The translations under genes and the position numbers were made by a program. From a virus: a stretch of DNA of 64,000 nt. This document shows positions 9,520 to 59,426 of the stretch, in pieces. How positions within the stretch are numbered: position 1 is the first letter of the stretch; the number at the start of each line of letters is the position of its first letter. The notes below the pieces were generated by a model. It saw only the letters and a program-made list of their open reading frames with translations, was not told the DNA's origin and made no database searches. The DNA lies in the IMG/VR virus record IMGVR_UViG_3300017991_000056, positions 1 to 64,000 of that record; one strand, 5' to 3'.

Positions 9520-9636
9520 ATGGCGAACGTCATCATAAGTGAAAAGGTCGCGGAGGTCATCCGGGTGGACGGGACCTGCAAGGCCGTAGGCGGGATTGTT
9601 GATCCTCCGCCACGTGGCGGGAAATATGAGACTTGA
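9520..9636 (+). CDS. Small ORF duplicating the head of the TPTPTV protein
   Basis: This is a 38-residue ORF starting [16 protein letters not shown], identical over its first 16 residues to the start of the protein at 6990, with about 90% DNA identity over some 50 bp. It then diverges and ends after PPPRGGKYET. It has no clear ribosome-binding site. It is probably a truncated duplicate head left beside the glycosyltransferase gene. Its 3' end contains a palindrome followed by AATATGAGA that may be regulatory. Confidence 0.5.
   Translation: MANVIISEKVAEVIRVDGTCKAVGGIVDPPPRGGKYET
9606..9629 (+). promoter_or_regulatory. Palindrome followed by AATATGAGA upstream of glycosyltransferase
   Basis: CCGCCACGTGGCGGG forms a near-perfect inverted repeat directly followed by AAATATGAGA, 18 bases before the glycosyltransferase ATG. 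The same arrangement (GCCCCATGGGGC then GGGCAATATGAGA) precedes the sulfotransferase at 15730. This shared layout suggests a common control element for the two modification enzymes, either an operator or an mRNA hairpin. Confidence 0.35.
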
Positions 9637-9647
9637 GAAAGGTGGAA

Positions 9648-11960
9648 ATGAAAGCAATCGCATTGGCAACTGACAGCGTTCTCGGGAACCCGCTCGGGCG
9701 GTCCCTGAAGTATTGCTGCATGACGTGCGGGATCGAGCTCGACACGCACTCCGTGACGGCCGGGTGCGCCGAGTACAAGCCGCTGTTCGAGAAGTACGAC
9801 CAGGTCATCACGTGGAACTGCCGCATGCCTCACAACTGGCCGACGGCCCGGGGCAAGAACGTCCTCTTCGTCGAGAACGCCCTCTTGTCCCAGGGCTGCG
9901 GGGCCTTCGTCGACGCGAGGGGCTTCTTCTCGCAGTCGAACCTTTGCAGGGAGAGGCACTGGGACTCGGTCTCGTACGAGGCTCACGCCGGCCGTGTCAG
10001 GGACTTCGTCCGGGACAAGTTCAAGTGGGAGGCCTTCTCTGGGGGGACGCCCGGCGGCCCGGTCCTGGTGGCGCTCCAGAACTCGCTCGACTGCAACATG
10101 AGGTACGAGTTCCCGTTCGGGGCGAAGAGGGGAGGGGACCGGCTGCTGTCGAGCCTGGAGGTGCTGGCGACGCACCTTCCGAGGTTCGGGGACCGGAAGG
10201 TGCTCATACGGCCGCATCCGCGGTTCATGGCCTGGTGGGACGAGCATTTTGAGGAGTACAGGGGCAAGTTCTGGAGGGACGAGTGGGAGCTCAACCTGGG
10301 GGGCAGCATCTACGAGCTCATGCCGAGCTGCTCGGCGCTGGTGGCGGTGAACTCGACGGTCATCAGCGAGGGCATGACGCTGGGGCTTCCGATAGCCGCC
10401 ATCGGGACGGGCGCCTTCAGCGGGTGCGGGGGAATCCTCGAGTGCGCCGCCGACCCGTCGAGGCTGGGAGAGATCGGGTCATTCGAGCCGGACGTCGAGG
10501 CCTGCAAGAAGTACGTGGCGGCCGTGCTCACGAGGCACCAGATGATGTACGCCTGGAAGCCGACGGAGGTGTTTGCCAACGAGGAGTTCCAGAAGTGGGT
10601 CAAGAGGGGCCGGAGCATGTTCCGGCCGAAGGCCCTCAACATCGGGGTGGACTGGCAGAAGAAGATAGCGGAGAGCAGGAAGGCGAACCCGTTCACGGTC
10701 GACGTCCTGGACAGGCTGAGGAACGAGGGCATGCAGTATCTCGACGCCGACGCCGGAAGCAGAAAGAGGAAGCGGTGCTGCGGGGGCAAGATCAGGAGCG
10801 TGTACCTGGAGCGATGGGAGAGGGAGAGCAAGAGGGGGGATGTCCAGAGGTACGCCAGGCTCGACGAGCTGAAAAGTGGAGGGAGGGTGGTCCTTGGGTA
10901 TTTCGGGAGTGCCCACCTGGGTGACTGCGTCGTCACGACCACGCTGCCTCGGAAGCTCAAGGAGAAGTACGGCTGCGAGGTGATGGTGGTCAGGCACAGG
11001 AGGACCATCGAGGTCTTCGGGAACAACCCGCACTTCGACGGGCACTTCGTCGCCGGCCGCGTCGCGCTCGGGGGGGCGCAGTGCGGGAACGGCACGCATG
11101 TCCAGCGGGTCGAGCGCTATTTCGATCTTCCGGAGGAGCCTTTCTCGAAAGGGGAGATATACTTGACGGAGGGCGAGCAGAGATGGGCGAACGACCTGAG
11201 GGCCAGCTTGCCGGACAGGCCGATCGTCGTCCTCTGCAACGGCTCCGGGACCAACAACACCGAGGACCCGTTCAACCTGCGCCCGTGGCAGGCGTGGGCC
11301 GACGTCATCGGGGAGGGCGCCACGGTGATCCAGCTGGCCATGAAGAGCAAGGCGGCGTACCAGGAGAGGAAGAACCGGCAGGGGATGGCGGACGTGGAGG
11401 CGATCCTGGACGGGCACCTGGTCCTGGCGAACCTGCCGACGAGGATGTTCCTCGCGGTCTTCAGCGTGGCCGACGCCTATTTCGGGACGTGGGCAGCGGG
11501 GTCGCACGCGGCGGCGGCGTTCGGGCTTCATTCGATCGTTCACCTGAACAGCCACTTGAAGGGCTGGCCGGAGTTCCCGGGCAGTACGCGCCTGGAGCAG
11601 TTCCTCTACCCGCAGCACTCGTTCGCGAGGTGGGGCGACGAGGTTCCGCTCCCTCCGGACGAGCTGCCCGCGAGGAAATCCCCGAAGAGGGCGACCCCGG
11701 AGGAGGCCGCGAAAGCGACGGAGGCCGTGGCGGGGGCGGGGGACCAGAAGAGGGCGGCGGCCGAATACGAGGAGGTCGCGGCAGAGATAGACGCCTCCAT
11801 AGATTCCGAGATGCAGGCGCTTCTGACGGCGCATCGAGAGGCTGTTGAGAGGCCAGGCATGGACCCGGCCATATTGGCGGCCGGTAGGTCGGACGTGGTG
11901 AGCGTCTGGCGCCTGAAGAGGCCTCCCGAGGAAGAGAAGGATTGGCCCGCCGGGTCCTGA
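9648..11960 (+). CDS. Two-domain glycosyltransferase (KpsS/CDP-glycerol-like plus GT9-like)
   Basis: This is a 770-residue protein. The N-terminal half (about 1-330) resembles GT-B capsule-polysaccharide/CDP-glycerophosphotransferase enzymes: RPHPR at 188-192 and NSTVISEG at 235-242. The C-terminal half (about 412-660) resembles the GT9 heptosyltransferase fold: GYFGSAHLGDCVVTTTLP near 417, a CNGSG loop and WAAGSHAAAAFG. The start is ATG at 9648, behind AAAGGTGG; an in-frame TTG 15 bases earlier is less likely. It sits between the TPTPTV protein and a collagen-like fibre, so virion fibre glycosylation is the likely job, although modification of host surface sugars is possible. The C-terminal 110 residues are charged and low in complexity. 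Confidence 0.75.
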   Translation: MKAIALATDSVLGNPLGRSLKYCCMTCGIELDTHSVTAGCAEYKPLFEKYDQVITWNCRMPHNWPTARGKNVLFVENALLSQGCGAFVDARGFFSQSNLCRERHWDSVSYEAHAGRVRDFVRDKFKWEAFSGGTPGGPVLVALQNSLDCNMRYEFPFGAKRGGDRLLSSLEVLATHLPRFGDRKVLIRPHPRFMAWWDEHFEEYRGKFWRDEWELNLGGSIYELMPSCSALVAVNSTVISEGMTLGLPIAAIGTGAFSGCGGILECAADPSRLGEIGSFEPDVEACKKYVAAVLTRHQMMYAWKPTEVFANEEFQKWVKRGRSMFRPKALNIGVDWQKKIAESRKANPFTVDVLDRLRNEGMQYLDADAGSRKRKRCCGGKIRSVYLERWERESKRGDVQRYARLDELKSGGRVVLGYFGSAHLGDCVVTTTLPRKLKEKYGCEVMVVRHRRTIEVFGNNPHFDGHFVAGRVALGGAQCGNGTHVQRVERYFDLPEEPFSKGEIYLTEGEQRWANDLRASLPDRPIVVLCNGSGTNNTEDPFNLRPWQAWADVIGEGATVIQLAMKSKAAYQERKNRQGMADVEAILDGHLVLANLPTRMFLAVFSVADAYFGTWAAGSHAAAAFGLHSIVHLNSHLKGWPEFPGSTRLEQFLYPQHSFARWGDEVPLPPDELPARKSPKRATPEEAAKATEAVAGAGDQKRAAAEYEEVAAEIDASIDSEMQALLTAHREAVERPGMDPAILAAGRSDVVSVWRLKRPPEEEKDWPAGS

Positions 11961-52027: not shown

Positions 52028-52888
52028 ATGGCAGTTGACAACCAGACCAAGCAGGAAATCATTTCCCAGCACATCCGCACGGCAGCCGGCCGCGCTCGCC
52101 TCGCTGCGAGCATGATTCAGCCGCTCAGGCGGCGCAGGGACTACACGAGCGTAGGGAGAAAGGCGTTTTACGTCGAGGCGTTGCCCGATGGCGCCCTGCC
52201 TATCTACGACAAGGACCCGAACGTGGTGGCCTACGTCATCGGCGAAGAGGGCGAGAACATCGTCTCGGTCGCGAAGCCGAAGCGCGTGATGTTCCCGCTG
52301 TTCGAGATCGCCTCGAACCCCGAGATCCAGCTGACCGAGATCAAGCAGCGGCGCTTCGACCTGATCGAGCGCTCCGTCGACCTCGGCAAGAGCGAGATCC
52401 AGGCCGAGGAGGACCGCAAGGTCTTCGCCGTCATGGACGCGCTCGCGGCCGACCCGACGAACCCGAACCCGCCGATCCCCGTCACGGGCAACCTGACGGC
52501 GAACGCGCTGGCCGACGCCTTCGCGAACATCGAACGCACCGACATCCGTGTCGCGACCGTGTTCCTGAACGCCAAGGACTACGCCGACCTGCGCAAGTGG
52601 GACCGGGACACGCTGGACATCGAGACCCAGGCGATCCTGCTGAAGACCGGGCTCATGGCCACCCTCTGGGGCGCCAAGCTCATGGTCAGCCGCATCGTCC
52701 CCGAGGGAACGGTGTACTGCTGCGGCGAGGCCGAGTTCTTCGGCCGCATGCCCGTCCGGACGGAGCTCACGGTCCTGTCCGCCGACGACCCCAAGAACAG
52801 GCTGATCGGCTTCAGCATGTTCGAGCAGCTCGGAATTGGGGCGTATAACCCCTTTTCCCTGCAGGTCCTTCAAATTACTCGTGTTTGA
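52028..52888 (+). CDS. Major capsid protein
   Basis: This is a 286-residue protein after AAGGAGGG. It has an N-terminal helix (QEIISQHIRTAAGRARLA), a spine-like segment (RRFDLIERSVDLGKSEIQAEEDRKVFAVMDAL), an A-domain strand (RVATVFLNAKDYADLRKW) and a C-terminal strand region (GAKLMVSRIVPEGTVYCCGE). The order fits the HK97-fold capsid proteins of large phages. It is followed by a strong terminator and preceded by decoration and scaffold genes. Confidence 0.8.
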   Translation: MAVDNQTKQEIISQHIRTAAGRARLAASMIQPLRRRRDYTSVGRKAFYVEALPDGALPIYDKDPNVVAYVIGEEGENIVSVAKPKRVMFPLFEIASNPEIQLTEIKQRRFDLIERSVDLGKSEIQAEEDRKVFAVMDALAADPTNPNPPIPVTGNLTANALADAFANIERTDIRVATVFLNAKDYADLRKWDRDTLDIETQAILLKTGLMATLWGAKLMVSRIVPEGTVYCCGEAEFFGRMPVRTELTVLSADDPKNRLIGFSMFEQLGIGAYNPFSLQVLQITRV

Positions 52889-54809: not shown

Positions 54810-55041
54810 GCGTTCCGATCTCGTCGGTGCTTGGTGCGCGAAGGCGATCGGGGACCTGAACGCGAAGCCTGTCTGGCGTAGGGGGAGGTGTGTGGTTCGT
54901 GTTCCGGTGATTTCCTGTGGGCGCTGCGTCCTTTGTTCGGCGGTAATTTTCTCGCGCGTGCTTGGGAACGGTGACTCGTACCGTATTATAGGGTTGGAGT
55001 AGACTGACGAAAACGCAAGCAGCAACGAGGAGGACAAGAAA
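54810..55041 (+). other. Intergenic region with promoter and a decayed repeat of downstream sequence
   Basis: These 232 bases carry no convincing gene. Bases near 54837-54870 (GAAGGCGATCGGGGACCTGA...) resemble 55340-55375 (GAAGGCGATCAAGGACCTGA...), suggesting an old duplication of the 55042 gene's 3' end. A sigma70-like promoter lies at 54962-54989. Confidence 0.5.
54962..54989 (+). promoter_or_regulatory. Sigma70-like promoter TTGGGA-N16-TATTAT
   Basis: The two boxes are separated by 16 bp and lie 52 bases before the ATG of the duplicated-module gene. Confidence 0.65.
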
Positions 55042-55419
55042 ATGAACAAGACGACGACTGTGGTAATGGCTCCCGGCATTGAGCCCGAGCAGTTGGAAGG
55101 ACTGAAGGTCGAAATCGAGAAGTCCATGGAGGACGCGGCCCATGTTGTCTGCGTCCCTTACGTGTTCAGCGTGGAGCAGATGGAGCTACGGCAAGACGAA
55201 ATGGCGATAATGGCTCCCGGCATTGAGCCCGAGCAGTTGGAGGGACTGAAGGTCGAAATCGAGAAGTCCATGGAGGACGCGGCCCATATCATCTTTACCA
55301 ATTACGCGTTCAGCGTGGAGCGCATGGAGCTGCGGGGCGAAGGCGATCAAGGACCTGAACGAAAACCCAGTGTGGATGAAATGAGAGAAAAGATTGCGCG
55401 AGCGTTTGAAGGAGGTTGA
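55042..55419 (+). CDS. Small acidic protein made of two tandem modules
   Basis: This is a 125-residue protein after GAGGAGGAC. It consists of two copies of a 48-residue module: residues 9-56 and 57-about 98, each with MAPGIEPEQLEGLKVEIEKS followed by MEDAAH. The DNA copies (from 55066 and 55210, period 144 bp) are almost identical over the first 80 bp, so the duplication is recent. The C-terminus is KPSVDEMREKIARAFEGG. Function unknown. Confidence 0.65.
   Translation: MNKTTTVVMAPGIEPEQLEGLKVEIEKSMEDAAHVVCVPYVFSVEQMELRQDEMAIMAPGIEPEQLEGLKVEIEKSMEDAAHIIFTNYAFSVERMELRGEGDQGPERKPSVDEMREKIARAFEGG
55066..55335 (+). repeat. 144-bp tandem duplication
   Basis: Copy 1 is 55066-55209 and copy 2 begins at 55210. 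The first 81 bp of each differ by about one base; later parts have diverged, with the downstream ends encoding YVFSVEQMELR and YAFSVERMELR. Confidence 0.85.
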
Positions 55420-55630
55420 TGAGGATCGGCGCGGATGCGCTTATCCTGGTGCCTCGGAGATGCGGGAAGCATTGGAGGCCGTCGACAAGGATTTGGCTTC
55501 CTGTCGGGCTTCTGACAAGGGGCCTGCGTATCTGGGGCTTTTGATGGCGGTTCAGGACTTGTTGGCGGAGTTTCGCATTGACGGGTTCTGTTTGGAGATG
55601 ATGGCGAAGGGCCATGCGCGTCCTGGATGA
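55394..55630 (+). CDS. Small hypothetical protein, start uncertain
   Basis: The frame encodes up to 78 residues from TTG at 55394, overlapping the previous gene; an ATG at 55460 would give a 56-residue product. It is helical and acidic (MREALEAVDKDLASCRASD, LMAVQDLLAEFRIDGF). No recognised family. Confidence 0.45.
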   Translation: MRERLKEVDEDRRGCAYPGASEMREALEAVDKDLASCRASDKGPAYLGLLMAVQDLLAEFRIDGFCLEMMAKGHARPG

Positions 55631-55877
55631 CGTGGAGTGGGTCGACAGCATCACGGACGATCACGATCCCAACATGTGTCCGTCCTGCGGCGGTTTCCAG
55701 AGCCATCGGCACTCGCAGGAGAACGTCGGGCACAGGGAGGGCTGCGAGCTTGTCGGGGCGAGGCGCGAGCTGTTCCGGCAGGCTGTGGACGTCGCGTCGG
55801 GGATGCCGGACGGGAATCTTTTTCTCAACATGGTTGTCGGGCTGCATCTGGCGAGGCCGGTCCCGAGGTTCGGATGA
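55614..55877 (+). CDS. Small protein with CxxC/HxH cluster
   Basis: This is an 87-residue protein overlapping the previous gene, with AAGGG ahead of its ATG. NMCPSCGGFQSHRHSQENVGH and GCEL suggest a zinc site. It is coupled by ATGA overlap to the next microprotein. Confidence 0.55.
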   Translation: MRVLDDVEWVDSITDDHDPNMCPSCGGFQSHRHSQENVGHREGCELVGARRELFRQAVDVASGMPDGNLFLNMVVGLHLARPVPRFG

Positions 55878-55951
55878 GGGGAGGCGAGGAGGGCGGCCAC
55901 TGTTCCTTGCACGGCTGCATGAGGGCAATCTGCGGCTGCGAATATGACTAG
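55874..55951 (+). CDS. 25-residue Cys-rich microprotein
   Basis: A 25-residue ORF coupled by ATGA to its upstream neighbour and overlapping the next start. Four cysteines and two histidines are present (GGHCSLHGCMRAICGCEYD), consistent with a tiny metal-binding peptide. Confidence 0.4.
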   Translation: MRGGEEGGHCSLHGCMRAICGCEYD

Positions 55952-56198
55952 TGGGATCGTCGAGACCAGGATGGTGCGTCTTCGTGACCGGGACGTCGAG
56001 GTGTCCTTCCGCGGGGACGGCAGGGGATCGTGGAAGATATCCATGGTGGGCGGGAGGAGGTTTCGGTCGGCGTCCAGGTTCGAGTCGTTGGGGTCGGCGG
56101 TCGTCGGGGTGCAGATGCTGGACTGGGAGTTCCGTGGGGGTCGCGACGACGGGGAGGTTCTCTCCGTCGGGGAGGTTCTCTCCGTCGATGACGCATAG
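55944..56198 (+). CDS. Small hypothetical beta-rich protein
   Basis: This is an 84-residue protein beginning MTSGIVETRMVRLRDRDVEV. Strands alternate (EVSFRGDGRGSWKISMVGG). The end contains a short direct repeat GEVLSVGEVLSV. No family is recognised. Confidence 0.5.
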   Translation: MTSGIVETRMVRLRDRDVEVSFRGDGRGSWKISMVGGRRFRSASRFESLGSAVVGVQMLDWEFRGGRDDGEVLSVGEVLSVDDA

Positions 56199-56214
56199 CG
56201 TAGGAGGTGGCCGG

Positions 56215-56601
56215 ATGTCAACGAAGCGGAAGCAGGACAAGAGGCGCGCCCGCGCCAAGAGCGTGGTCAAGGCGAAGAACAGGCTGAAGGCGAAGCCGAG
56301 GCCGAGGTTCTATCTGGAGGCGGACCTTCCCGGGGGCGTCGGGTGGAAGAAGGTCATGGCCTTCAGGAAGATGGAGGACGTGGACGCCTATGTCGAGTCC
56401 GTCGAGGACATCAGGAGGAGGAATGCCTCCGAGATCGTGAGGGGGCGCGTGGTCATGGCCTCGACTGGGCGAGTGGTGGCGGTGATCGAGCCGCACGAGA
56501 TCGAGGGGCCGGAAATCCTGGGGGCTTCCGGGCATGTCCGGGGCCGAGGGAAGAAGGAAAATGCCGAGGGGGCTTTGGAAAAGGAGGCCGAAGGTGTATA
56601 A
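56215..56601 (+). CDS. Small basic hypothetical protein
   Basis: This is a 128-residue protein; TAGGAGGTGG precedes its ATG. The N-terminal 30 residues are strongly basic (KRRARAKSVVKAKNRLKAKP), followed by a small folded domain (VMAFRKMEDVDAYVESVEDI) and a charged tail. Nucleic-acid binding is possible. The promoter for the RNA locus lies inside its 3' end. Confidence 0.6.
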   Translation: MSTKRKQDKRRARAKSVVKAKNRLKAKPRPRFYLEADLPGGVGWKKVMAFRKMEDVDAYVESVEDIRRRNASEIVRGRVVMASTGRVVAVIEPHEIEGPEILGASGHVRGRGKKENAEGALEKEAEGV

Positions 56602-56602
56602 T
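56575..56602 (+). promoter_or_regulatory. Sigma70-like promoter for the RNA locus
   Basis: TTGGAA-N16-TATAAT, in the context GGTGTATAAT, is the strongest sigma70-type promoter seen here. It overlaps the end of the preceding gene. Transcription should start near 56609 and read through the structured RNA and probably the tmRNA and tRNA. Confidence 0.75.
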
Positions 56603-56608
56603 GTCCGT

Positions 56609-57318
56609 GAGAGGGCGACGGTTTCCCAGAGCTTCTTTGAGAAAATCTTCTCGCCGCGTGGAAAACCGTCCTCTTTTGGCAATATGGTTGGTGAGCGAGT
56701 TCTTTGAAAATCGAATGAGACAGCGTTCCTGGCTCGGGGTGCCGTTCTGAGTGCAACGAAGCCAGGGGGTCTGGGAGAGAGGACGCGCACCCCGGCGGCT
56801 AGCGTCCAAGTAGCGAATCGAGCTGCGCCATAGAGCGTGGCCGCCCCTTCGGGAGGGCTGGCGAACGGAACGGCGGGATCGGGCTCTGCGAAAAGTGGGC
56901 ATGCCGAAGCGAGGCAGGTTGCCGGTAGGCGAGAGCCACGCCGGAATCGTACGTGGCCCATGACCGAGCCTCCGAACGAAGGGTTCAAGGGTGGACATGG
57001 AGAAGGACGCTCCGAACCAGGGACGCTGGAGAATGAACAAGATTTTCCGGCACCGGCCCGACCCGGACAGCTCCGGGCTCAGGGCGGTGAGCGCGAAAGG
57101 GGTCCTCTAGTAGGGATCGGGACAGCGATGCGCGGTTTGAGTCCGTCGCCCGAAGCACGCATGGGCAAGCGTACCACGATCGGGACAGCGATGCGCGGTT
57201 TGAGTCCGTCGCCCGAAGCACGCATGGGCAAGCGTACCACGACCGAACGCGGGTTCCGAGTACGACGCGTCGTCACTCTCGGACAAGGCCGAGGCGGGCG
57301 GGTTGCCGGGATTAACTT
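56609..57318 (+). ncRNA. Large structured non-coding RNA candidate, class unknown
   Basis: About 710 nt lie between a strong promoter and a tmRNA without a convincing gene. Stems visible by eye: GACGGTTT (56637) with AAACCGTC; a perfect H-type pseudoknot (56728-56734 with 56760-56766, and 56735-56742 with 56787-56794); GGACGC 56781-56786 with GCGTCC 56802-56807; GGCTCT 56882-56887 with AGAGCC 56932-56937; GCCACG 56935-56940 with CGTGGC 56952-56957; GGTTC near 56982 with GAACC; and CCCGGA with TCCGGG near 57062-57077. Its size and its place beside a tRNA and tmRNA recall the ornate large RNAs GOLLD and ROOL of phages, but I cannot confirm membership. A CTTTGAAAATCG sequence at 56702 could be an internal promoter. 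Confidence 0.55.
57115..57240 (+). repeat. 63-bp exact tandem duplication inside the structured RNA
   Basis: 57115-57177 and 57178-57240 are identical 63-bp units. Each contains a GCGA...TCGC hairpin over TTTGAGT and a GCACGCATGGGCAAGCGT segment. The period is too short and the copies too few for a CRISPR. Confidence 0.9.
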
Positions 57319-57713
57319 GGGGGCGAAATGGTATCGACTGGCGCGGCTGAGCTTGAGACTGCATGTGGAGGATGACCGTTGGCCTCCTGAATCATCGGTC
57401 GCAGAGACAACTGCAAAAAACATTCTTTCCTTCCCTGGTCGGCCTCGGCTGGCCATCGCTGCCTGAGAAGGCGGCGCGGGTGTCCCTGCCTGACGCCGAT
57501 AGGGGTCGGGGGCAACGACATCGGTGGACAAGCCATGGAGAGACATGCTGACGAGGAGCACGGAAAGACGTCTCTGGCAGCCTGGAAAGACGGGACGGGG
57601 CCTGCCGACGGGGCCTGAGCCGGACTAGACATCCGGCAAGCCTTCGGCTAAGCATGTAGATGTCCGAGGGACGTCCGTTCAGGACCCGGGTTCGACTCCT
57701 GGCGCCTCCACCA
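57319..57713 (+). ncRNA. ssrA: Transfer-messenger RNA (tmRNA)
   Basis: This is a 395-nt tmRNA that releases stalled ribosomes and tags the nascent peptide. The 5' end GGGGGCG pairs with CGCCTCC at 57703-57709, followed by ACCA (CCA is encoded). A T arm with loop TTCGACT closes the tRNA-like domain. The conserved CTAAGCATGTAG lies near 57648. The tag frame opens at GCA 57413 after GAGACAACT and ends at TGA 57464-57466, encoding AKNILSFPGRPRLAIAA (17 residues, with an additional Ala from the charged tmRNA). The AA ending resembles degradation tags; the PGRPR centre is unusual. No smpB gene is in the window, so host SmpB is presumably used. Confidence 0.92.
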
Positions 57714-57756
57714 AGTTTTCGATCATGAGCATTATCGCGAGAGGTACTTTTTTAAT

Positions 57757-57833
<77 letters not shown>

Positions 57834-57840
57834 AACTTTT

Positions 57841-57880
57841 AGTACCGTAGGTCGCAGGTTCGATTCCTGCCGGGGGTGCC
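57841..57880 (+). pseudogene. 3' half of a tRNA (fragment)
   Basis: GCAGG-TTCGATT-CCTGC is a perfect T arm followed by CGGGGGT-G-CC, the 3' half of a tRNA acceptor. The 5' half is missing; the sequence upstream is the 3' flank of tRNA-Arg. It differs from tRNA-Arg(CCT), so it derives from another tRNA. Such 3' fragments are typical of recombination or att-site scars. Confidence 0.7.
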
Positions 57881-57892
57881 GATGATGCGGCT

Positions 57893-57952
57893 CTGGCAAG
57901 TTACCCTCCCCTCCCCTCCCCCCTTCCCTACTTGCCAGGGCCCTTTTTTTTT
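57893..57952 (+). terminator. Intrinsic terminator with polypyrimidine loop
   Basis: CTGGCAAG pairs with CTTGCCAG around a 30-base loop rich in CCCT repeats; GGCCC and nine T residues follow. The C-runs would be G-quadruplex-forming on the minus strand. Confidence 0.7.
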
Positions 57953-57985
57953 GGCCGTCGGTTCGCCGACGGCCATTTTTTCTTT
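57953..57985 (+). terminator. Strong Rho-independent terminator
   Basis: A perfect 9-bp stem (GGCCGTCGG / CCGACGGCC) with a UUCG tetraloop is followed by ATTTTTTCTTT. It closes the RNA locus. Confidence 0.95.
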
Positions 57986-57992
57986 GATACGG
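57982..57992 (+). promoter_or_regulatory. Weak late-promoter-like box
   Basis: CTTTGATACGG resembles box 3 (CTTTGATATTCG) and lies 38 bases before a small ORF with a strong ribosome-binding site. It overlaps the terminator tail. Confidence 0.3.
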
Positions 57993-58029
57993 GGGACTGT
58001 GGTAGAGACCACCTTCAAAGGAGGATGAT

Positions 58030-58158
58030 ATGAGACCGCAGCCGACCGCGACCAGGCCCCAGGGCCTTCTCCGACCCCGTCCGGCCCGGGCCGAGCTCTC
58101 CGCCGGCCCCGTCGTCCAGGGCACGTGCGTGGCCCAGGTGATCGGAGGTGGCCGATGA
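58030..58158 (+). CDS. Small Pro/Arg-rich leader-like protein
   Basis: This is a 42-residue ORF (MRPQPTATRPQGLLRPRP...) with AAAGGAGG 6 bases upstream of its ATG and an ATGA stop-start overlap with the next gene. A hairpin (GTGGT-AGAG-ACCAC) precedes it. It could be a translated leader that couples expression of the transferase gene. Confidence 0.5.
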   Translation: MRPQPTATRPQGLLRPRPARAELSAGPVVQGTCVAQVIGGGR

Positions 58159-59426
58159 GCGACCTGGCGGAATGGCGCTGGAGGTCCTTCGAGTCGGTGC
58201 TGAGGCACGTATGCGTGAAGCGTCGGCCCAGGAGGGTCCTGGAGTGGGGCCCGGGCCTCTCGACCGAGATCGTCCTGGAGACGTGCCCGGACGCCTCGGT
58301 CCTGACTGTCGAGCATGATCCGAAGTGGGAGGCGAAGGCGAAGGAGCGCCTGGCCGGCAAGGGCGACGTCGAGATCGCCAAGCGGGTCATCAGCATGAAG
58401 GGGGGGCTGTCGGACGGCTACGTGAACCATCCTGTCCTGAGGAACCTCCGGGAGAACGGAGGGGTCGTGGCCCCCGAGTACGACCTGGTCTTCGTGGACG
58501 GCCGATTCAGGTGCGACTGCCTGGTCGCGGCCCATCTCCTGGTGAGGCCCGACGGCGTGGTCGTCGTCCACGACACTCACCGCGGCAACTACTTGGACGC
58601 CATCAGGCTGTTTCGGCACTGGCAGCAGTTCGCGGAGCTGAGGACGGCCGTCATGTCCAAGTCGCCGATGCCGTGGCTGGAGGGCGCCGGGAAGGGGATC
58701 GGGGGCGTCCTGTCCGACGTGGACACCCTCGACGACCTGGAGAGGCGCCTGGTGTCCGGGAAGCCGTTCACCTACCTCCGGTTCGGGGACGCGGACCTCT
58801 ACTTCATGGTGGACCCGAACTTCGGCGGGAACCGGCGCCACGATCCGGTCCCGGGGCTTTCCAGGGAGCTCCGAGGGTCGTTCGCCATCGACCATCCCGA
58901 CTACCTGATCGGGTGCGTGGCCGGTGGAAGGGTCTTCAAGAGCAAGGAGGACGAGCTGAAGGAGATCGCGGCCCGCTTCCACACGGGGAGGACGTACCAT
59001 AGCGCGGTGGCCCTCCACATGGCCTATGGCCGCGATCCGGAGAGGTTCGCGGCCTTTTGCAGGAACAGCTTCGGGGGACGTCGCGTCCTGATGGTGGGAG
59101 GCGCGGCGATATGCAGGGACCTTCTGGTCAGGAAGGTGTTCAACGTGACGGCGACCATAGAGCTGACGGACAGGAACGCCTACCAGGGGCTCGACGCCCA
59201 GATGGAGCGGATAAGGAGGAACGTGCCGAAGTTCGACGTGATGGTGAGCGCCCTCGGGCAGGCGACCAGGGTCCTCGGGGGGCGTCTCTGGGACGAGGGG
59301 GCCAGGGACATTCAGTATTTCGACGTGGGGTCGGCGGTGGACGCCCTTGCCGGGAGGGAGCTCCGGAGCTGGATCAGGAAGTACGCCGGGAGGCGCGAGG
59401 AGTACCGGCGCATGTTCCTCGGGTGA
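58155..59426 (+). CDS. Methyltransferase-like plus GT-D glycosyltransferase-like fusion
   Basis: This is a 423-residue protein coupled to the upstream small ORF, with GGAGGTGG before the ATG. Residues 20-180 resemble a SAM-dependent methyltransferase (LEWGPGLSTEIVLE, LTVEHDPKWEAKA, LVFVDGRF, VVVHDTHRG). Residues 200-423 resemble the GT-D glycosyltransferase family: the diagnostic YLRFGDADLYFM, then VLMVGGAAICRDLL and FDVMVSALGQ. This is a third glycan-related enzyme in the window after those at 9648 and 15730. It may act on virion glycans or host surface sugars. Confidence 0.65.
   Translation: MSDLAEWRWRSFESVLRHVCVKRRPRRVLEWGPGLSTEIVLETCPDASVLTVEHDPKWEAKAKERLAGKGDVEIAKRVISMKGGLSDGYVNHPVLRNLRENGGVVAPEYDLVFVDGRFRCDCLVAAHLLVRPDGVVVVHDTHRGNYLDAIRLFRHWQQFAELRTAVMSKSPMPWLEGAGKGIGGVLSDVDTLDDLERRLVSGKPFTYLRFGDADLYFMVDPNFGGNRRHDPVPGLSRELRGSFAIDHPDYLIGCVAGGRVFKSKEDELKEIAARFHTGRTYHSAVALHMAYGRDPERFAAFCRNSFGGRRVLMVGGAAICRDLLVRKVFNVTATIELTDRNAYQGLDAQMERIRRNVPKFDVMVSALGQATRVLGGRLWDEGARDIQYFDVGSAVDALAGRELRSWIRKYAGRREEYRRMFLG

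What the first reader, a model, noticed from the sequence alone, without database searches (positions are those of the whole stretch)
56609..57318. About 700-nt highly structured RNA with a perfect pseudoknot next to tmRNA and tRNA
A strong promoter drives a stretch with no plausible gene but many exact stems, including an H-type pseudoknot with 7-bp and 8-bp perfect stems whose 5' strands are adjacent. Large ornate RNAs (GOLLD, ROOL) occur in phages beside tRNAs. This may be one of them or a new class.
Basis: partly seen in the sequence, partly recalled or inferred. Interest (0 to 1): 0.82.

Follow-up and report, generated by a model that had tools for sequence, protein, structure and literature searches.

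The report
Phage RNA with rRNA-style leader
Just before its tmRNA gene, a large phage encodes a roughly 310-letter structured RNA that matches no catalogued family and, like ribosomal RNA, follows an antitermination-type signal and is closed by a long end-to-end helix; what it does is unknown.

Summary
The 710-nt span is not one RNA and as a whole folds no better than shuffled sequence. Inside it lies a discrete 308-nt unit, 56721-57028, with two diverged homologues in other phage contigs (306 and 321 nt). All three share a boxA-like leader (GTTCTTTGAAAATCGAAT in the window), the block AGGACGCGC, and a 15-20-bp helix joining the two ends. That helix differs in sequence in all three yet pairs at 15 of 15 registered positions in each. 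No Rfam family fits; GOLLD and ROOL models give nothing. boxA-like sites lie within 700 nt upstream of tmRNA in 13 of 15 phage loci; relatives carry islands of other structured RNAs there, one class with a piece resembling 23S rRNA (GTPase-associated centre). Best reading: a new class of phage structural RNA, transcribed with tmRNA and tRNA-Arg under rRNA-type antitermination and bounded by a leader-trailer-like helix. Transcription, Nus dependence, processing and function are inferred. Only three members are known; the interior fold is unresolved.

The parts
56575..56602 (+). promoter-like site TTGGAA-16-TATAAT
   Evidence: consensus scan, 10 of 12; function not shown
56609..56677 (+). leader hairpin upstream of boxA
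   Evidence: fold of 56609-56690, z -2.2, 5 of 200 shuffles as good
56699..56716 (+). boxA-like element GTTCTTTGAAAATCGAAT
   Evidence: resembles E. coli rrnB boxA read from the fetched record; boxA-like 9-mer upstream of tmRNA in 13 of 15 loci; only TTCTTTGANAAT in the whole record
56721..57028 (+). structured RNA unit, 308 nt
   Evidence: homologues of 306 and 321 nt in L038 and L123; MFE z -2.6
56721..56737 (+). 5' arm of closing helix P1
   Evidence: duplex beats 300 of 300 shuffles; 15 of 15 registered positions pair in all three sequences
57012..57028 (+). 3' arm of closing helix P1
56747..56763 (+). block CTGAGTGCAACGAAGCC, identical in L038, diverged in L123
56778..56788 (+). conserved core AGAGGACGCGC; AGGACGCGC invariant in three sequences
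56965..56979 (+). block CGAGCCTCCGAACGA, identical in L038, not conserved in L123
   Evidence: strands present (3 of 400 shuffles) but stem 1 excludes P1 and is not conserved
57115..57240 (+). two perfect copies of a 63-nt repeat between the RNA and tmRNA, absent from L038
57319..57713 (+). tmRNA, tag AKNILSFPGRPRLAIAA
57757..57833 (+). tRNA-Arg (CCT)
57952..57975 (+). terminator-like hairpin, the only one in 55000-59000

Best explanation
A new class of phage-encoded structured RNA, about 306-321 nt. It is transcribed from the promoter at 56575-56602 together with tmRNA and tRNA-Arg, up to the terminator at 57952-57975. The boxA at 56699-56716 would load the host Nus antitermination complex, as on rRNA, so that RNA polymerase crosses the long untranslated stretch while the 5' end stays tethered. 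When the 3' arm emerges about 290 nt later it pairs with the 5' arm that lies just behind boxA to make P1, the counterpart of the rRNA leader-trailer helix. RNase III-type cleavage at P1 would then free the RNA from the tmRNA precursor. The product would be a stable RNA acting in trans in the infected cell, most plausibly on translation, since its companions are tmRNA, tRNAs and RNAs with rRNA-like pieces. Shown: the unit, its homologues, P1 with compensatory changes, the boxA-like element and its association with tmRNA. Inferred: transcription, Nus binding, cleavage, stability and any action on translation.
For: Three homologues of near-equal length. P1 duplex beats all 300 shuffles in each (z -4.1, -5.3, -5.8), with the partner 307, 308 and 319 nt after boxA. 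15 of 15 registered positions pair in all three, each with more than one pair type; arms swapped with L123 pair at only 2-5 of 16. The core folds better than shuffles in WIN and L038. A boxA-like 9-mer lies upstream of tmRNA in 13 of 15 loci, against 1 antisense and 1 reversed-control site. The L123 copy ends about 1.27 kb before a tmRNA that has its own boxA, so the unit is not tied to tmRNA. Role of boxA and leader-trailer helices in rRNA: PMC10250234.
Against: Only three members; wide searches found none more. L123 is a weak sequence match over all held DNA (E 0.11). The P1 register was set by hand. A significant long closing helix was found behind only 4 of 16 boxA sites tested (WIN, L038, L123_4, and L123_2 at 2 of 300). 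The interior fold is not resolved. No expression data.
Confidence: 0.6

Rival explanations
1. It is only a long cis leader of tmRNA: boxA and a folded leader that aid antitermination and tmRNA maturation, with no separate RNA product.
For: In the window and L038 it lies directly between boxA and tmRNA, and in L038 only about 40 nt separate P1 from tmRNA. Several relatives have boxA right before tmRNA with no such RNA between.
Against: In L123 the homologue ends about 1.27 kb before a tmRNA that has its own boxA. Unit length and end-closing helix are kept in all three.
Confidence: 0.25
2. Chance structure in GC-rich spacer DNA; no functional RNA.
For: The whole 710 nt folds no better than shuffles; few homologues; the interior fold is not conserved.
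Against: P1 with compensatory change in three diverged sequences, boxA and AGGACGCGC blocks, and near-equal unit length.
Confidence: 0.08
3. A diverged GOLLD, ROOL or other catalogued RNA, for example a group I intron.
For: Phage setting beside tRNAs, as for GOLLD and ROOL (PMC12286853, passages).
Against: No Rfam match to E 10 in the window region, none in the L123 region to E 2 apart from tmRNA and an HDV-like ribozyme, none to the GOLLD and ROOL models in the three records.
Confidence: 0.07

Closest known systems
Bacterial pre-16S rRNA leader (boxB-boxA and leader-trailer helix; PMC10250234)
   Same: Hairpin, then boxA, then the 5' strand of a long helix whose 3' strand follows the enclosed RNA; tRNA in the same transcript
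   Different: Encloses about 275 nt of unknown RNA instead of 16S; phage-borne; followed by tmRNA; Nus and RNase III involvement not tested
GOLLD RNA (RF02032)
   Same: Large structured phage RNA beside tRNA genes
   Different: No match to the model; about 310 nt, whereas many GOLLD exceed 800 nt (PMC12286853, passages)
ROOL RNA (RF03087)
   Same: Large structured phage RNA near tRNA genes
   Different: No match to the 574-position model (without positive control)
nut sites of lambdoid phages
   Same: Phage boxA with a hairpin
   Different: Here the boxA resembles the rRNA one and serves non-coding units (RNA, tmRNA, tRNA); no N-like protein was sought

Membership tests
GOLLD (RF02032) | match to the family covariance model | tested here: not met
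   no match at E<=10 in G000, G016, G009; none in all-Rfam scans
GOLLD (RF02032) | homo-oligomeric nanocage | not testable with these tools
   needs cryo-EM
ROOL (RF03087) | match to the family covariance model | tested here: not met
   no match at E<=10 in G000, G016, G009; no control genome rang, so weaker; none
rRNA-type antitermination leader | boxA sequence | tested here: met
   GTTCTTTGAAAATCGAAT and GCTCTTTGACAATCGAAT (L038) against E. coli GCTCTTTAACAATTTATC read from the fetched rrnB leader
rRNA-type antitermination leader | long helix joining leader and trailer around the RNA | tested here: met
   P1 in three homologues
rRNA-type antitermination leader | binding of NusB-S10 and resistance to termination | not testable with these tools
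   needs binding and transcription assays
ribosomal RNA (LSU) | match to RF02541 | tested here: not met
   no match in G000; one 14-bit match in G010, in a different RNA class
   stem 1 excludes P1, is 5 bp without covariation in L038 and absent at the homologous place in L123; stem 2 has different pairing strands at shifted places in L038

The most novel reading that the evidence does not exclude
This RNA is one of a set of phage RNAs that imitate ribosomal RNA in how they are made (boxA, leader-trailer helix) and in part in what they contain (a GTPase-associated-centre piece in the sister class of L117, L119 and L124), and that bind host ribosomal proteins or translation factors to redirect translation alongside phage tmRNA and tRNAs.
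Probability: 0.2. Interest if true: 0.92.

Novelty: new variant of a known kind. Interest (0 to 1): 0.62.

Why it matters
Large phages carry tRNAs and tmRNA, but an rRNA-style layout (boxA leader, end-closing helix) around uncatalogued structured RNAs would show how they make long untranslated RNAs without premature termination. It also gives a concrete, testable set of RNAs that may act on host ribosomes; the sister RNA with a GTPase-centre-like sequence makes that idea directly checkable.

Tried and rejected
GOLLD, ROOL, LSU rRNA and all of Rfam: no match for the unit.

A sarcin-ricin-like reading of GAGAGGAC in the core was dropped: L123 has AACAGGAC there, and such short matches to rRNA are expected by chance (hand estimate, no call).

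Stem 1 as a conserved alternative partner of the P1 arm (a switch): 128, 879 and 25 of 1000 shuffles do as well in WIN, L038 and L123, so not supported as a shared feature.

More homologues: DNA patterns in viral contigs and genome contigs, neighbour proteins, whole-record searches. Rejected as chance: L148-L156, L157 (apparently coding), G028/G030 at E about 1e-3 (inside the small basic-protein gene), G001/G002 at E 5e-4 to 9e-4 (40 nt of the interior, downstream of their tmRNA, not followed up). GenBank phages: no match to the RNA beyond 23-32-nt pieces at E 10; the hits that are listed lie in the tRNA part.

RNAalifold on two and three sequences: interior helices depend on the alignment. 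Alignment A5 mixed orientations and was not used.

Full report
What is at the place. The window is part of a 133,403-base virus record whose likely genes lie on the + strand (my reading of codon-position composition), with a major capsid protein at 52028-52885 (PHROG 2522, E 3.4e-54). Its nearest named relatives by capsid are Tunturiibacter phage Tunturi_5 (48%) and Bacillus phage G (37%), after an uncultured metagenomic phage (68%). The finding sits between a small basic-protein gene (ends 56601) and tmRNA (57319-57713), followed by tRNA-Arg (57757-57833) and a terminator-like hairpin (57952-57975). A promoter-like site lies at 56575-56602 and no terminator-like site was found between it and 57952. 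So RNA, tmRNA and tRNA are probably one transcript (inference).

The 710-nt span is not the unit. As a whole it folds no better than shuffles (z +0.9). Blastn against 80 capsid-linked contigs (the best 80 of 123 relatives found) gave one homologue, L038, just before its tmRNA (73% over 90 nt, E 1.9e-6). The WIN/L038 comparison places conserved blocks from 56699 to about 57028 and none in the last ~290 nt before tmRNA. Indels of 1, 2, 4 and 5 nt speak against a shared reading frame. A third homologue, L123 (about 9576-9896), was found by nhmmer: E 2.6e-4 with WIN against 23 hand-cut units, but only E 0.11 as the best non-self hit over 1.27 Mb of held DNA with the two-sequence profile. Its support therefore rests also on structure. 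A model from all three finds no further credible member in 39 and then 43 records; two weak hits lie inside a coding gene. Pattern and protein scans of public collections added none.

The closing helix. Directly behind the boxA-like element, the first 17-21 nt pair with a segment 288-300 nt downstream: 16 pairs and one C.A mismatch in the window, 16 contiguous pairs in L038, 20 pairs and one C.A mismatch at the same place in L123. Each duplex beat all 300 shuffles of the downstream sequence (z -4.1, -5.3, -5.8). Registered on the mismatch (my choice), all 15 shared positions pair in all three, each with more than one pair type. Arms swapped between L123 and the others pair at 2-5 of 16; swaps between WIN and L038 still pair at 13-14 of 17, since those two are closer. 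The units are 308, 306 and 321 nt long. Of 16 boxA sites tested, only these three and one other (L123_2, 2 of 300) have a significant distant partner, so the helix is not general to all units. The interior fold is unresolved.

The leader. GTTCTTTGAAAATCGAAT resembles the E. coli rrnB boxA, CTGCTCTTTAACAATTTATC, read from the fetched record. TTCTTTGANAAT occurs once in the whole 133-kb record. In 15 loci (window, L038 and 13 relatives) a boxA-like 9-mer lies in the 700 nt upstream of tmRNA in 13, against 1 antisense and 1 reversed-pattern site in the same stretches and 4 in 41 kb downstream. In 39 records a longer pattern gave 64 matches against 18 for its reversed control (my sums). It also stands before tRNA genes (L131, L135-L137, L142). 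The layout of hairpin, boxA and end-closing helix is that of pre-rRNA: in E. coli the leader-trailer helix is essential, RNase III cuts it, and boxA recruits NusB-S10 (PMC10250234, abstract and Introduction).

Surroundings in relatives. tmRNA is above cut-off in 17 of 38 capsid-linked records; three pairs of these look like the same virus (two pairs and part of a third seen as identical upstream stretches). In several of them the kilobases before tmRNA hold further boxA-led RNA units. One class (L124, L117, L119) begins with a sequence like 23S 1057-1077, identical over 21 nt in L124, and ends with GGCGTAAYAGCAC, which I read as like the 23S 1086-1104 loop; both belong to the GTPase-associated centre, with up to a few hundred nt between them. 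At 6 or fewer mismatches the first half is found 4 times in the 5-kb upstream regions, three of them in this class (0, 4 and 5 mismatches), against 0.83 on average and at most 3 in shuffles; the E. coli-derived second half is not enriched (2 hits against 0.6). The Rfam LSU model sees only one of these (14 bits). In minus-strand controls blastn to E. coli rRNA also gives 4 hits at E 0.08-0.55, so only the exact 21-mer and the shared position are persuasive. HDV-like ribozyme matches below cut-off abut the tmRNA 3' end in L091 and L097, and a twister-P5 match is in L098. Theta ribozymes at phage tRNAs are known (PMC10879173, seen in a search listing with the start of its abstract).

Reading. I take the unit as a new class of phage structural RNA made by an rRNA-like route (0.6). 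The main rival is a cis leader of tmRNA (0.25); the L123 copy, about 1.27 kb from a tmRNA that has its own boxA, speaks against it. I found no description in print: searches returned ROOL/GOLLD, theta-ribozyme, rRNA-leader and other papers whose listings did not describe it. The library lacks most subscription journals and all preprints.

Noticed in passing
L124:8512-8932, L117 (oriented, -3893 to about -3545 from tmRNA), L119 (-246 to -20): A boxA-led RNA class whose 5' end carries a 23S GTPase-associated-centre-like hairpin (21 of 21 nt identical to E. coli 23S 1057-1077 in L124) and whose 3' end carries GGCGTAAYAGCAC, like the second loop of that centre.
   Followed up: partly
L124 (-1331 to -850 from tmRNA), L123 (-2107 to -1670), L118 (-567 to -100), L117 (-3446 to -2975), oriented: A second boxA-led RNA class of about 450 nt, starting near ACTGGCAGC and ending near GGTGAGAATCCGGCCTGCCAGT, shared by four phages.
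   Followed up: partly
L135 and L136 (between tRNAs); L113 upstream of tmRNA: Repeated elements GTACGCTTCAG...TTTTTGGTAC; two of them enclose what reads like a circularly permuted tRNA (3' half before 5' half).
   Followed up: no
L091:1431-1501 (-), L097:1919-1988 (+), L098:912-988 (+): HDV-like ribozyme matches (below cut-off) directly at the 3' end of tmRNA, and a twister-P5 match just over its cut-off, in relatives' RNA islands.
   Followed up: no
window 57840-57880; L038:7150-7200: Orphan 3' halves of tRNA (T arm and acceptor strand) with no 5' half seen nearby.
   Followed up: no
L038:6220-6693: A possible homing-endonuclease reading frame (LAGLIDADG-like, recalled, not searched) right after tmRNA, followed by a copy of the tmRNA 3' end ACTCCCGCCGCCTCCACCA.
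   Followed up: no
L122 and L121, last 60-100 nt before tmRNA: A lone sequence like a CRISPR repeat (…GTGGATTGAAAC) just upstream of tmRNA in two phages (CRISPR likeness recalled).
   Followed up: no
window 56215-56601; L038:4903-5382; L014:14567-14947; L121:8679-9080: A small basic protein (32-37% identity to the window's) lies upstream of the tmRNA region in these four phages.
   Followed up: partly
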